This document shows, in pieces, positions 29,761-32,688 of a stretch of 32,853 nt of DNA; positions within the stretch are counted from its first letter, which is position 1; the number at the start of each line of letters is the position of its first letter. This DNA is from Gammaproteobacteria bacterium (GTDB lineage Bacteria > Pseudomonadota > Gammaproteobacteria > Pseudomonadales > Azotimanducaceae). Under the pieces are notes generated by a model. The model did not search any database and had not been told where the DNA came from. It was given only the letters and a program-made list of their open reading frames with translations. Where the stretch lies: positions 1-32,853 of the forward strand of contig VXPO01000117.1 in the NCBI GenBank assembly GCA_009839505.1. The letters are read 5' to 3'. The position numbers and the translations under genes are program-made.

Positions 29761-31536
29761 ATGCGTAATTTGGTCGCCACGTCGTTCGTGGTTTGCGGCC
29801 TGGTGGGTTGCGAACAGGCTACCGTGCAAGTGGAGGAATCGACGTCGGCTCCGCCCGGCACGACAGCGGTGGAGGCTGCCCCCGCGCCGGACATCCACCA
29901 CTGGACGAACGACAAGGACATCGGTGGCGGCGGTGGGCCCGTCACGTCGGAGCATCTGCTGGCGTCGCCGTCGAACCCCGAGCAATGGCTCCTCTACGGG
30001 GGTGACTACGGCAACCACCGCCACTCGCCCATCGACGACATCACGCCGGAAAACGCATCCCGGCTCCAGGTGGCCTGGGCGTTCCCCACCGGCACTACCG
30101 AGCAGTTCGAGGTCTCGCCCACGGTCTACGACGGCATCATGTACGTCACCACGTCGTTCAATCGGATCTTCGCCCTCGATGCGGCCAACGGCGAAATCTA
30201 CTGGCGCTACGACCACCAGCAGCCAGACGATCTGCGCCTGTGCTGCGGCAACGTGAACCGAGGTGCGGCCATCGCCGGCGACCTGGTGCTCATGGCCACT
30301 CTCGACGCCAAGCTGATCGCCTTCGACCGCCTGACCGGGACGATTGCCTGGGAGAAGACCATCGCCGACTACACCGGCGGCTTCAGCGCCACCTCCATGC
30401 CTATGATCGTCAAGGACATGGCCATCATCGGCGTGGCGGGCGGCGAGTTCGGCGTGCGCGGTTTCTTCGATGCCTACGACGTCGCCACGGGCGAGCTGCG
30501 CTGGAGACACTACACGCTCCCGGCCGAGGGTGAGCCCGGCAGCGAGACCTGGGCCGGCGACTCCTACAAGACCGGCGGGTCGCCCGCCTGGACGAGCGGT
30601 GCCTACGATCCCGAGACGGACATCCTGTACTGGACCACCGGCAATCCCTCCCCCGACTGGAACGGCGATCTGCGGGCGGGCGACAACCTCTACTCCAACA
30701 GCCTGCTGGCGGTGGATCCCGATACCGGCGAACGCCTGTGGCACTTCCAGTTCACGCCCCACGACGTCTGGGACTACGACGGCAATACCCAGATCTTTCT
30801 CACCGACGTAAAGCGCGGCGAGGACACGGTCAAGGCCATCGTCCAGGCCAACCGCAACGGCTACTTCTACACCCTGGACCGGGCCACCGGCGCGTTCATG
30901 TCGGCGACGCAGTACGTGGAGCAACTCAACTGGGCGACCATCGACGACAACGGGCGCCCAATCGTCGACCCCCGTGCCAATCCCACCGAGGAACCGGACT
31001 TCCGGGTCTGCCCGGGCAACCTCGGGGGCATGAACGGCGCCTACAGCGGTGCCCTGAATCCCGATCTCGGCCTTGCCTACATCCCGGTCATCGAGTCGTG
31101 CCAGCAATTCCAGAAAGGCATCGTCGCGTTCGTAAGAGGCCAGCCCTTCATGGGCGGCGAGCCCATCGTCGTCGACGTGACCGCCGGCACCGACTACGGC
31201 CACCTGTCGGCGGTCGACATCAACACCGGCGAAGTCCGCTGGCGGTACAAGGATCCCGAACCGATGATGGCCGGCGCGCTTTCCACAGCCGGCGGGGTCG
31301 TCTTCACCGGCACCCGGGACGGCTTCGCCCTGGCGCTGGACGCCGCGACCGGAGACGAACTGTGGAAGTTCCGCATGGGGGGTGGCGTCCGCAGCCAGCC
31401 CGTGGCGTACCGCGCGGATGGCAAGACCTACGTCGCCATGGGCTCCGGCAACGACATCAACATCGCGAGCTTCGCCGCGGGATCCGTCGCCATCCCCGAA
31501 GGGGGCCATCTGTTCGTCTTCGTGTTGGCGGATTGA
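29761..31536 (+). CDS. PQQ-dependent alcohol dehydrogenase, lanthanide-type signature, lipoprotein
   Basis: This quinoprotein of about 591 residues (eight-bladed propeller, methanol/ethanol dehydrogenase family) oxidises a primary alcohol in the periplasm and passes electrons to a cytochrome c. The vicinal cysteine pair is Cys161-Cys162 (LCCGNVNRG). TGNPSPDWNGDLRAGDNLYSN and the propeller repeats (DAATGDELWKF) are typical. At the catalytic position the sequence reads HDVWDYDG: Asp338 should be the catalytic base, and Asp340 two residues on is the extra ligand that marks lanthanide enzymes (XoxF, PedH), while calcium enzymes have Ala or Ser there. From ATG 29761, MRNLVATSFVVCGLVGC is a lipoprotein signal, unusual for a family that is normally soluble. 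ATG 29731 is possible but would sit on the putative -10. It heads a three-gene operon. Confidence 0.92.
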   Translation: MRNLVATSFVVCGLVGCEQATVQVEESTSAPPGTTAVEAAPAPDIHHWTNDKDIGGGGGPVTSEHLLASPSNPEQWLLYGGDYGNHRHSPIDDITPENASRLQVAWAFPTGTTEQFEVSPTVYDGIMYVTTSFNRIFALDAANGEIYWRYDHQQPDDLRLCCGNVNRGAAIAGDLVLMATLDAKLIAFDRLTGTIAWEKTIADYTGGFSATSMPMIVKDMAIIGVAGGEFGVRGFFDAYDVATGELRWRHYTLPAEGEPGSETWAGDSYKTGGSPAWTSGAYDPETDILYWTTGNPSPDWNGDLRAGDNLYSNSLLAVDPDTGERLWHFQFTPHDVWDYDGNTQIFLTDVKRGEDTVKAIVQANRNGYFYTLDRATGAFMSATQYVEQLNWATIDDNGRPIVDPRANPTEEPDFRVCPGNLGGMNGAYSGALNPDLGLAYIPVIESCQQFQKGIVAFVRGQPFMGGEPIVVDVTAGTDYGHLSAVDINTGEVRWRYKDPEPMMAGALSTAGGVVFTGTRDGFALALDAATGDELWKFRMGGGVRSQPVAYRADGKTYVAMGSGNDINIASFAAGSVAIPEGGHLFVFVLAD

Positions 31537-31537
31537 G

Positions 31538-32347
31538 ATGCGCACGACCGCACCCGCGCTGGCCGCTACTGCGTTGGCCCTCGCCGCTTGCGGGCCACCG
31601 ACGGAGCAGGGTGCGGAGCAGGACGTTGCCAAGGACGAACTGCGGGTCTGCTTCGCCGAGAACGACCCGCCACGCTCCCGGCGCGGGGGTAGCGGGTTCG
31701 ATATCGACGTCGCCCGGGAACTCGCCGCGCAACTAGACCGGCGGTTGGTGGTCGTGTGGATTCCGGAAGAGGAGCAGACGGACATCGAGTCCACCGACGC
31801 CGACTACATGCCACTGCTTACCGGCCAGTGCCATCTGCAGCTTTCCGTCCCGGGCGCCGGCGCGATCGAGCGCTTTCGTGGCTGGCTGGTGTTGAGCGAG
31901 CCCTACTATGGCGCGGCGTTCGAGCTGATTCCCGCCGACGCATCCTTCCGCTTCGGCGAGCCCTATTCGGAAACCGTCGCCGTGCGCGCCAACACCGTGG
32001 CCCACGTGGCCCTGGATGCGACCGGTGTGTCCTGGTCCCAGCAGGCGGCCCACGAAGGCATCCTCCGGGCGGTAGCCGACGGCACCGCCGCCGTCGGACT
32101 CGTCTGGGGACCGCAGCTCGCACTGTTCGACGTCGAGCGAGCAGCCGACTTCGAGGTACCGCCCGTTCTTCGCTGGAACCTCCACGCGACACTGCGCAGG
32201 GACAATCCGTTACGCGCGGATGTCGACGGGATCCTCTCGAGCACCCCGTTTCGGGAACGCGTCGCCAATCTCCAGGCTCGCCACGGCATACCCGTGCGCG
32301 GGCCGTTCCCGACCGTGCACACGGCAGCACTGCTGCAGTCGCTCTGA
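31538..32347 (+). CDS. XoxJ/MxaJ-like quinoprotein-associated periplasmic binding protein
   Basis: This 269-residue protein has the fold of a family 3 solute-binding protein and resembles the MxaJ/XoxJ proteins that accompany PQQ dehydrogenases. It shows LRVCFAENDPPRSRRGGSGFDIDVARELAAQL, a central TGQCHLQLSVPGA, LSEPYYGAAFELI and VADGTAAVGLVWGP. MRTTAPALAATALALAAC is a lipoprotein signal with a LAAC lipobox, so like its neighbours it is predicted to be lipid-anchored. It starts one base after the dehydrogenase stop. The known relatives are thought to help activate or mature the dehydrogenase rather than import solutes. An amino-acid-type binding protein is the alternative, but there is no permease nearby. 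Confidence 0.85.
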   Translation: MRTTAPALAATALALAACGPPTEQGAEQDVAKDELRVCFAENDPPRSRRGGSGFDIDVARELAAQLDRRLVVVWIPEEEQTDIESTDADYMPLLTGQCHLQLSVPGAGAIERFRGWLVLSEPYYGAAFELIPADASFRFGEPYSETVAVRANTVAHVALDATGVSWSQQAAHEGILRAVADGTAAVGLVWGPQLALFDVERAADFEVPPVLRWNLHATLRRDNPLRADVDGILSSTPFRERVANLQARHGIPVRGPFPTVHTAALLQSL

Positions 32348-32349
32348 CC

Positions 32350-32688
32350 GTGCGAGTTTTCCTTCTCCTGGCCGCGCTGGCTGTTTCGGCTTGTGGTTCG
32401 AAGAGCCCCGCCGACACGTTCCGGGCCAGTCCTGACGATCTCTCCCGGGGAAAGGCAGTGTTCATCGGTACCTGCGCCGGCTATTGCCACGCGACCACGC
32501 CGAGCGGTCGAGACGCGCCTTTCCTGTTCGACGACCAGTGGCTGCACGGCGGCACCGACCAGGAAATCTTCGACTCGATCGCCCAAGGCATCCCCGGCAC
32601 CACCATGATCCCCTTCAAGGACAAACTGCCGGAGGGGGACGACGACATCTGGCGGATCGTCGCCTACCTCACCACGACGCCCGGGTAG
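32350..32688 (+). CDS. Small lipoprotein cytochrome c with CX3CH haem motif
   Basis: This 112-residue class I cytochrome c is the probable electron acceptor of the dehydrogenase (XoxG/MxaG position). The N-terminus MRVFLLLAALAVSAC is a lipoprotein signal (lipobox AVSAC, Cys15). The haem site reads TCAGYCHA, three residues between the cysteines instead of two. GKAVFIGTC before it and PGTTMIPF (probable axial Met) plus the C-terminal helix DDDIWRIVAYL after it are otherwise classic. Start GTG 32350, two bases after the preceding stop. The sequence around the motif still looks clean, so a miscall is not the obvious explanation, though the read end is within 200 bases. Confidence 0.88.
   Translation: MRVFLLLAALAVSACGSKSPADTFRASPDDLSRGKAVFIGTCAGYCHATTPSGRDAPFLFDDQWLHGGTDQEIFDSIAQGIPGTTMIPFKDKLPEGDDDIWRIVAYLTTTPG

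What the first reader, a model, noticed from the sequence alone, without database searches (positions are those of the whole stretch)
29761..32688. A lanthanide-type alcohol oxidation module whose three proteins are all predicted lipoproteins
The dehydrogenase carries the Asp-Tyr-Asp signature of lanthanide-dependent quinoproteins and is followed by XoxJ-like and cytochrome c genes with 1- and 2-base gaps. All three N-termini end in a lipobox (LVGC, LAAC, VSAC). Known XoxF/PedH, XoxJ and XoxG proteins are, as far as I know, soluble periplasmic proteins. A fully membrane-tethered version would be a different physical design, perhaps for a symbiotic or low-diffusion niche.
Basis: partly seen in the sequence, partly recalled or inferred. 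Interest (0 to 1): 0.72.

Follow-up and report, generated by a model that had tools for sequence, protein, structure and literature searches.

The report
Membrane-tethered lanthanide-type alcohol oxidation module
Three neighbouring genes of an uncultured bacterium encode an alcohol-oxidising enzyme of the rare-earth-metal kind, a helper and a cytochrome that all appear to carry a lipid membrane anchor; the anchors on enzyme and cytochrome are conserved in relatives, the one on the helper is a local addition, and the host seems unable to make the enzyme's own cofactor.

Summary
Three genes, 1 and 2 bases apart, each begin with a signal that meets a PROSITE-type lipobox rule. The dehydrogenase has the full lanthanide-type site, E229, N295, D338, D340. 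Among 47 loci of its clade, 19 dehydrogenases meet the rule (21 by eye); none of 24 with SPI-like signals does; background is 11 of 263 ORFs. The trait changes once on the tree when a distant paralogue is left out. The cytochrome is lipobox-type in the same group and slightly beyond. The helper's lipobox is clear only in the window, L028, L029 and L061 (L064 ambiguous), so 'all three' elaborates a conserved two-lipoprotein unit. The dehydrogenase lies outside the XoxF and PedH reference branches. The cytochrome is not a XoxG: all 35 family members found beside these dehydrogenases carry the unusual heme motif CX3CH. Genomes of the lipobox group show no PqqC or PqqE, so they probably scavenge PQQ; ten of 23 genomes with SPI-type enzymes lack PqqC too. 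New variant of a known kind; lipidation, membrane, metal and substrate are predicted.

The parts
29761..31536 (+). PQQ-dependent alcohol dehydrogenase, lanthanide-type, predicted lipoprotein (591 aa)
   Evidence: TIGR03075 567 bits, cut-off 480; nearest solved structures 6zcv/6zcw; own clade
29761..29811 (+). signal peptide and lipobox LVG-C (Cys17) of the dehydrogenase
   Evidence: rule met; lipobox in 21 of 47 loci, 19 by rule and 2 by eye
29812..29898 (+). Pro/Ala/Glu/Thr-rich linker between lipid Cys and the folded part
   Evidence: Cys-to-core 56-79 residues in 21 lipobox rows, 23-51 in 14 of the 24 SPI rows (approximate cleavage sites)
30241..30246 (+). vicinal Cys161-Cys162
   Evidence: 45 of 46 clade loci, the other a gap
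30445..30447 (+). metal ligand Glu229
   Evidence: Glu in 45 of 46 clade loci, Asp in one
30643..30645 (+). metal ligand Asn295
   Evidence: 46 of 46 clade loci
30772..30780 (+). Asp338-Tyr339-Asp340: catalytic Asp and the lanthanide-diagnostic second Asp
   Evidence: second Asp in 46 of 46 clade loci and 34 of 34 outer loci
31538..32347 (+). XoxJ/MxaJ-like partner of solute-binding-protein fold, predicted lipoprotein (269 aa); lipobox LAAC at 31580-31591
   Evidence: TIGR03871 39.8 bits, below cut-off 212; profile A2 hits 5sv6, MxaJ 9ism and XoxJ 6onp first; Foldseek MxaJ 5sv6 rank 2, XoxJ 6onp rank 32; lipobox
32350..32688 (+). monoheme class I-type cytochrome c, predicted lipoprotein (GTG start, 112 aa); lipobox VSAC at 32383-32394
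   Evidence: PF13442 35.2 bits, cut-off 27; model pLDDT 83.5, weak matches to cytochromes c; lipobox
32473..32490 (+). heme attachment motif CAGYCH (CX3CH)
   Evidence: C42, Y45, C46, H47 invariant in 32 of 32 aligned members
32605..32607 (+). Met86, presumed distal heme ligand
   Evidence: invariant in 32 of 32; role inferred

Best explanation
A periplasmic alcohol oxidation module whose enzyme and electron acceptor are held to the same membrane by lipid anchors. The lipoprotein quinoprotein binds a lanthanide and PQQ and oxidises a small alcohol; the lipoprotein CX3CH monoheme cytochrome takes the electrons and passes them on towards a terminal oxidase; the XoxJ-like protein, here also a lipoprotein, helps load the apo-enzyme with PQQ and metal, the PQQ coming from outside because synthesis genes were not found in the host. 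Shown by sequence: gene order, lipobox motifs and their conservation, the metal and PQQ-pocket residues, CX3CH, no PqqC/PqqE match. Inferred: that lipidation happens; outer-membrane targeting (no Asp at +2); lanthanide use in vivo; loading role of J; electron route; substrate.
For: Dehydrogenase lipobox: rule met in 19 of 47 loci, 21 with L034 and L048 by eye; 0 of 24 SPI-type rows match; one change on the quick tree without the C146 paralogue, two with it. Background 11 of 263 called ORFs. Longer linker in lipobox rows. Position +2 Asp in 0 of 21 (for L033 the script cut at an inner Cys, its true +2 being Gln). Metal site and Cys pair conserved. J-family assignment by profile. Family cytochrome at the same locus in 35 of 47 loci, CX3CH in each. 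PqqC 0 of 16 genus genomes and 0 of 10 genomes behind further loci of this group (some may be the same genomes); PqqE 0 of 24 at E 1e-20. XoxJ and MxaJ are suggested to bind apo-enzyme and aid PQQ and metal insertion (PMC12997753, passages).
Against: No SignalP run or experiment. L040, inside the lipobox clade, shows no signal in frame; the strict rule fails for L034 and L048. J lipidation is patchy, so a need for three anchors is unlikely. Lipidation in the genome is not tied to the lanthanide motif: the C146 paralogue is also lipobox-type. PqqC is missing from 10 of 23 SPI-type genomes as well, so PQQ scavenging does not go with the anchor alone. No PqqU importer recognised. If both proteins sit on the outer membrane, a further carrier to the inner-membrane oxidase is needed and none was looked for. 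Metal use rests on a motif.
Confidence: 0.65

Rival explanations
1. Ordinary soluble periplasmic module: the lipobox-like motifs are by-products of Ala/Leu/Gly-rich signal peptides and cleavage is by signal peptidase I.
For: Ala/Leu-rich signals; J signals differ in type within the genus; the rule gives doubtful hits for the J of L061 and L064 and the cytochromes of L056 and L059.
Against: Dehydrogenase lipobox kept through a clade with divergent signals and absent by rule from 24 of 24 SPI-type rows; background 11 of 263; longer linker in lipobox rows.
Confidence: 0.14
2. Lipidation is a general habit of this lineage for exported enzymes and has no special tie to lanthanide chemistry.
For: The genome's C146 paralogue (Thr at the second Asp, a calcium-type motif) meets the rule with LGGC, and the quinohemoprotein on C35 has VLGC by eye. 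Dehydrogenase lipidation looks like one event in a gammaproteobacterial clade.
Against: Of ten PQQ-propeller frames examined in the genome only C146 meets the rule, and C29 and C10 look SPI-type; 11 of 263 neighbouring ORFs match.
Confidence: 0.35
3. The dehydrogenase runs without PQQ or on another quinone: an 'empty quinoprotein' in a PQQ non-maker.
For: No PqqC or PqqE match; second NCBIfam match is TIGR04528 'acido-empty-quinoprotein group A', 400.6 bits against a cut-off of 650; no PqqU recognised.
Against: Vicinal Cys and the four metal-site residues are conserved; many Gram-negative bacteria with PQQ enzymes do not make PQQ and take it up (PMC12124388, abstract and sections 10-11).
Confidence: 0.12

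Closest known systems
PedH / ExaF (lanthanide-dependent alcohol dehydrogenase) with PedF and PedG
   Same: Best solved-structure match is 6zcv/6zcw, quinoprotein ethanol dehydrogenase, E 8.9e-124 (that this is P. putida PedH is recalled); same metal ligands and Cys pair; partner cytochrome and solute-binding protein
   Different: PedH-like rows form a separate clade with an ExaA-like row (100/100); the PedH-like and PedF references look SPI-type and PedF is CX2CH
XoxF-XoxG-XoxJ (S. meliloti L108; plasmid enzyme of M. extorquens CM4, L109)
   Same: Lanthanide-type site; J-family partner; adjacent cytochrome (S. meliloti)
   Different: Dehydrogenase outside the XoxF branch; S. meliloti cytochrome is CX2CH; window J only 39.8 bits to TIGR03871. 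XoxG has been called membrane-bound (PMC10875860, passages)
S. fredii lanthanide-type dehydrogenase + J + cytochrome + cox genes (L114)
   Same: Gene order DH-J-cytochrome; its cytochrome also starts with a lipobox, LAAC, by eye
   Different: Dehydrogenase looks SPI-type and is distant in the tree; cytochrome CKGCH; cox genes follow
Marine lanthanide PQQ-DH families of Voutsinos et al. 2025 (PMC11996626)
   Same: D-x-D dehydrogenases in 20% of 1,888 marine MAGs, with large sets in some Pseudomonadales and Acidobacteria (abstract, sections 5 and 17)
   Different: Lipoprotein, signal peptide, cytochrome, XoxG and XoxJ do not occur in its main text; which of its 17 families holds this clade was not determined

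Membership tests
PQQ-dependent methanol/ethanol dehydrogenase (TIGR03075) | score above curated cut-off | tested here: met
   567.3 bits against 480.05
Lanthanide-dependent quinoprotein | second Asp (D-x-D) plus Glu and Asn ligands | tested here: met
   E229, N295, D338, D340 by alignment
Lanthanide-dependent quinoprotein | activity with La/Ce | not testable with these tools
   needs the enzyme
XoxF | groups with XoxF in the tree | tested here: not met
   two XoxF rows with MxaF, chosen as outgroup, on the other side of a 100/98 branch
PedH/ExaF | groups with PedH-like rows | tested here: not met
   PedH-like rows join an ExaA-like row, 100/100; the window joins 50 other rows, 100/99. Reference rows are few and were named from annotation and by me
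XoxJ/MxaJ | NCBIfam TIGR03871 or TIGR03870 above cut-off | tested here: not met
   39.8 and 32.6 bits against 212.15 and 258.1
XoxJ/MxaJ | nearest solved relatives are MxaJ/XoxJ; gene beside the dehydrogenase | tested here: met
   profile A2: 5sv6, 9ism, 6onp first; by fold, a GluR0 domain is rank 1, MxaJ rank 2, XoxJ rank 32
XoxG / cytochrome cL | TIGR03872 above cut-off | tested here: not met
   27.4 bits against 147.8
XoxG / cytochrome cL | CX2CH heme motif, as in the XoxG, PedF and MxaG references | tested here: not met
   CAGYCH
Bacterial lipoprotein | lipobox rule of the PROSITE type on all three | tested here: met
   the rule was written from recall
Bacterial lipoprotein | lipid on the Cys | not testable with these tools
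   needs labelling or mass spectrometry

The most novel reading that the evidence does not exclude
A distinct clade of lanthanide-type alcohol dehydrogenases whose natural electron acceptor is a dedicated cytochrome family with a conserved CX3CH heme, and which in PQQ-scavenging Gammaproteobacteria became an outer-membrane-tethered enzyme-cytochrome pair, loaded near the outer membrane with PQQ and lanthanide delivered from outside, with a tethered J loader in the most elaborate case.
Probability: 0.25. Interest if true: 0.75.

Novelty: new variant of a known kind. Interest (0 to 1): 0.5.

Why it matters
Lanthanide alcohol oxidation is usually pictured as soluble periplasmic enzymes meeting cytochromes. 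A conserved lipid-anchored enzyme-cytochrome pair in organisms that seem unable to make PQQ would mean that enzyme, acceptor and cofactor loading can be organised on a membrane, and gives a ready test of whether tethering serves cofactor scavenging. The CX3CH cytochrome family, kept in several phyla beside one dehydrogenase clade, is a marker for this clade and a natural case for asking why heme attachment would keep an extra residue.

Tried and rejected
XoxF or PedH membership of the dehydrogenase: rejected by trees. XoxG identity of the cytochrome: rejected. Need for all three anchors: rejected by the patchy J signal. Co-evolution of dehydrogenase and cytochrome lipidation: not testable, only 1 independent pair. 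PqqU as importer: inconclusive; nothing at E 1e-30 in 10 genomes, without a positive control, and only partial matches up to 41 bits in 5 genomes. Conserved flanking genes: gene calls of five loci show no constant neighbour by eye beyond the trio; Pfam was run on 7 flank proteins from four of them. Paper searches for lipidated XoxF or quinoproteins and for CX3CH or CXXXCH with cytochromes listed no paper that I recognised from title or abstract start as describing such a system; passages were opened in PMC11931723, PMC8788690 and PMC12737667 (nothing relevant) and in PMC10875860, PMC12997753, PMC11996626 and PMC5874918. The library is open-access papers only.

Rows dropped or set by hand: L073 (truncated) and own_C10b were left out of both trees, and L080-L107 were not used; own_C146, ADH_Pcar and L059 were also left out of the careful tree. 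Alignment A1 holds 32 of the 34 cytochromes (L035, whose frame runs on, and L047, which holds an X, left out); L055 has the motif but no start was chosen. Alignment A2 holds 18 J proteins of the 21 (L031, L065, L069 left out). For the change counts I set by eye: dehydrogenases L034 and L048 and cytochromes L034 and L041 as lipobox; cytochrome L056 as SPI although the rule matched; cytochrome L055, not judged by rule, as SPI; uncounted were dehydrogenase L040, cytochromes L059 and L073, and J of L031, L064, L065 and L069. The linker comparison used 14 of the 24 SPI rows.
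Full report
What is there. On the + strand, 29761-32688 holds three genes with gaps of 1 and 2 bases: a 591-residue quinoprotein (TIGR03075, 567 bits, cut-off 480), a 269-residue protein with weak similarity to the MoxJ-type models (39.8 and 32.6 bits, far below cut-offs) and a 112-residue cytochrome c (PF13442, 35 bits, cut-off 27). The window is contig C24 of a 4.7 Mb draft genome; the nearest named relatives are MAGs titled Pseudomonadales or Gammaproteobacteria. That several come from sponges is my recall of isolate codes, not a result.

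Lipoprotein signals. All three N-termini meet a PROSITE-type lipobox rule. Applied with equal freedom of start choice to 263 other called ORFs of these loci, the rule matches 11 (4.2%). In the window plus 46 loci of the dehydrogenase clade (L028-L073) the dehydrogenase meets the rule in 19 of 47; two more (L034, L048) have a clear lipobox but lack an early Lys or Arg; L040 shows no signal in frame; L073 is truncated; the remaining 24 look SPI-type by eye (the start of L055 is unclear) and none meets the rule. On the quick tree of 63 rows the trait changes once without the C146 paralogue and twice with it. In the careful tree (60 rows) 20 of the 21 lipobox rows, with L040, form a clade at 98/95; L041 stands just outside on an unresolved fork with the SPI-type L046 and L049, so a second gain or a loss is not excluded. 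Lipobox rows have a longer stretch between Cys and the folded part, 56-79 against 23-51 residues (21 rows against 14 of the 24 SPI rows; SPI cleavage sites are approximate and rows are related, so the p value of 8e-7 is not a fair test). None of the 21 has Asp at +2, so by the E. coli rule (recalled) the outer membrane is the default.

The cytochrome is lipobox-type in the same group and in L045, L046 and L049, where the dehydrogenase looks SPI-type; the Acidobacterial members and the other alphaproteobacterial members were scored SPI, although the rule matched L056 (2 changes). The J signal is lipobox-type in the window, L028, L029 and L061 and SPI-like in L030, L032, L033, L034, L036 and L038; L064 matches the rule but also fits SPI. 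So the conserved unit is dehydrogenase plus cytochrome, and the third anchor is local. J homologues were found in 21 of 81 loci (in L069 upstream of the dehydrogenase) and, with the window's J as query, in 14 of 58 genomes, all in the window's genus of 16.

Metal and cofactor site. Aligned to references, the window has E229, N295, D338, D340 and Cys161-Cys162. The second Asp is present in 46 of 46 clade loci and 34 of 34 outer loci; Glu is Asp in one clade locus, and the Cys pair is a gap in one. The second Asp is Ala in MxaF, Ser in an ExaA-like enzyme and Thr in the genome's C146 paralogue. Voutsinos et al. take D-x-D as indicator of lanthanide binding and D-x-A, D-x-T and D-x-S as calcium (PMC11996626, section 5). 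The closest solved structures are 6zcv and 6zcw, quinoprotein ethanol dehydrogenase. In the tree the window's group of 51 rows (100/99) is separate from the PedH/ExaA-like rows (100/100) and further from XoxF and MxaF; few reference rows were available.

The cytochrome. At the same locus a cytochrome with C[AGTMS][AG]YCH is found in 35 of 47 loci. The final list was made with that motif, but wider scans for CX2CH to CX4CH on the + strand within 4 kb downstream, and in 22 loci in every frame under 330 aa, showed no family-like CX2CH alternative directly beside the dehydrogenase; other cytochromes do occur nearby, such as the CX2CH multiheme frame upstream in L062 and a Cytochrom_C protein on the other strand in L048. 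Of the 12 loci without it, L028, L057 and L063 end within 650 bases after the dehydrogenase. In the 32 aligned members C42, Y45, C46, H47 and M86 are invariant. In L043, L044 and L047 it lies upstream of the dehydrogenase, and in the genome of L042 elsewhere, again with a lipobox by eye. In five genomes searched with the family profile, without use of the motif, the 4 strong hits are CX3CH and the other 13 matches lie in CX2CH cytochromes; one stray CX3CH-like frame lies beside one of these. The XoxG, PedF and MxaG references are CX2CH. The host has CcmE. Of 32 members 27 have an extra Cys pair, 5 (window, L029, L030, L031, L061) lack both and none has one: a coupled loss that fits a disulfide. 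The model (pLDDT 83.5) gives only weak PDB matches, best E 0.026 to cytochrome c6.

The J protein. A profile of 18 members finds MxaJ and XoxJ structures before amino-acid-binding proteins. The best model (pLDDT 81.4; the five range from 58.1 to 81.4) matches a GluR0 domain first, MxaJ second and XoxJ at rank 32. A 2026 paper on the ped cluster relates that XoxJ and MxaJ may bind partly folded apo-enzyme and aid insertion of PQQ and metal (PMC12997753, passages).

PQQ. PqqC has no match in 16 of 16 genus genomes, two of them single-contig; one of those two, G012, also gave no J and no strong cytochrome hit, and the dehydrogenase itself was not searched for genome by genome. PqqC has no match in 10 of 10 genomes behind further loci of this group (L032, L034, L037, L040-L044, L047, L048; some may be genus genomes again). 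Of the other 23 genomes of that call, with SPI-type dehydrogenases, 13 have PqqC and 10 do not. PqqE has no match at E 1e-20 in 24 of 24 genomes (16 of the genus and 8 behind loci of the group), and is above cut-off in 3 of 4 SPI-type ones; the window's genome has one 37-bit match against a cut-off of 381. The hosts should therefore depend on external PQQ, as many Gram-negative bacteria do (PMC12124388, abstract and sections 10-11). A PqqU importer was not recognised, which shows little because these transporters diverge.

Mechanism. Most likely the lipoprotein enzyme oxidises a small alcohol at its lanthanide-PQQ centre, hands electrons to the lipoprotein cytochrome held on the same membrane, and the J protein helps with loading. 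Tethering would raise the chance of encounter and keep scarce cofactor and metal with the cell; this is inference. Against a special link to lanthanides, the C146 paralogue with a calcium-type motif is also lipobox-type.

Verdict. Confirmed observation, partly supported interpretation: a new variant of a known kind, in which the conserved two-lipoprotein unit, the CX3CH partner and the missing PQQ synthesis tell more than the third anchor.

Noticed in passing
32473-32490: Heme motif CX3CH in the cytochrome, present in all 35 family members found beside these dehydrogenases, in several phyla.
   Followed up: yes
32350-32688 and relatives in alignment A1: An extra Cys pair (LFDC and C-terminal Cys) is present in 27 of 32 members and lost together in the window's group of five: a predicted disulfide lost as a unit.
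   Followed up: partly
G000:C146 (L119, 1-1704, minus strand): Second quinoprotein of the same genome with lipobox LGGC and Thr in place of the second Asp, calcium-type by motif.
   Followed up: partly
G000:C35 (L122): Quinohemoprotein-like gene with N-terminus ending VLGC and a CGACH heme motif; lipobox by eye, rule not met.
   Followed up: no
genome G000 and 15 genus relatives: No PqqC or PqqE match in a genus that encodes PQQ-type dehydrogenases; apparent PQQ scavengers whose importer was not recognised.
   Followed up: partly
L067: MAG titled Klebsiella pneumoniae carries a dehydrogenase grouping with uncultured Gammaproteobacteria; the label is probably wrong.
   Followed up: no
   Followed up: no
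L040 5350-7641: Dehydrogenase in the lipobox clade without a visible signal peptide in frame; the contig title gives coverage 3.2, so an assembly error is possible.
   Followed up: partly
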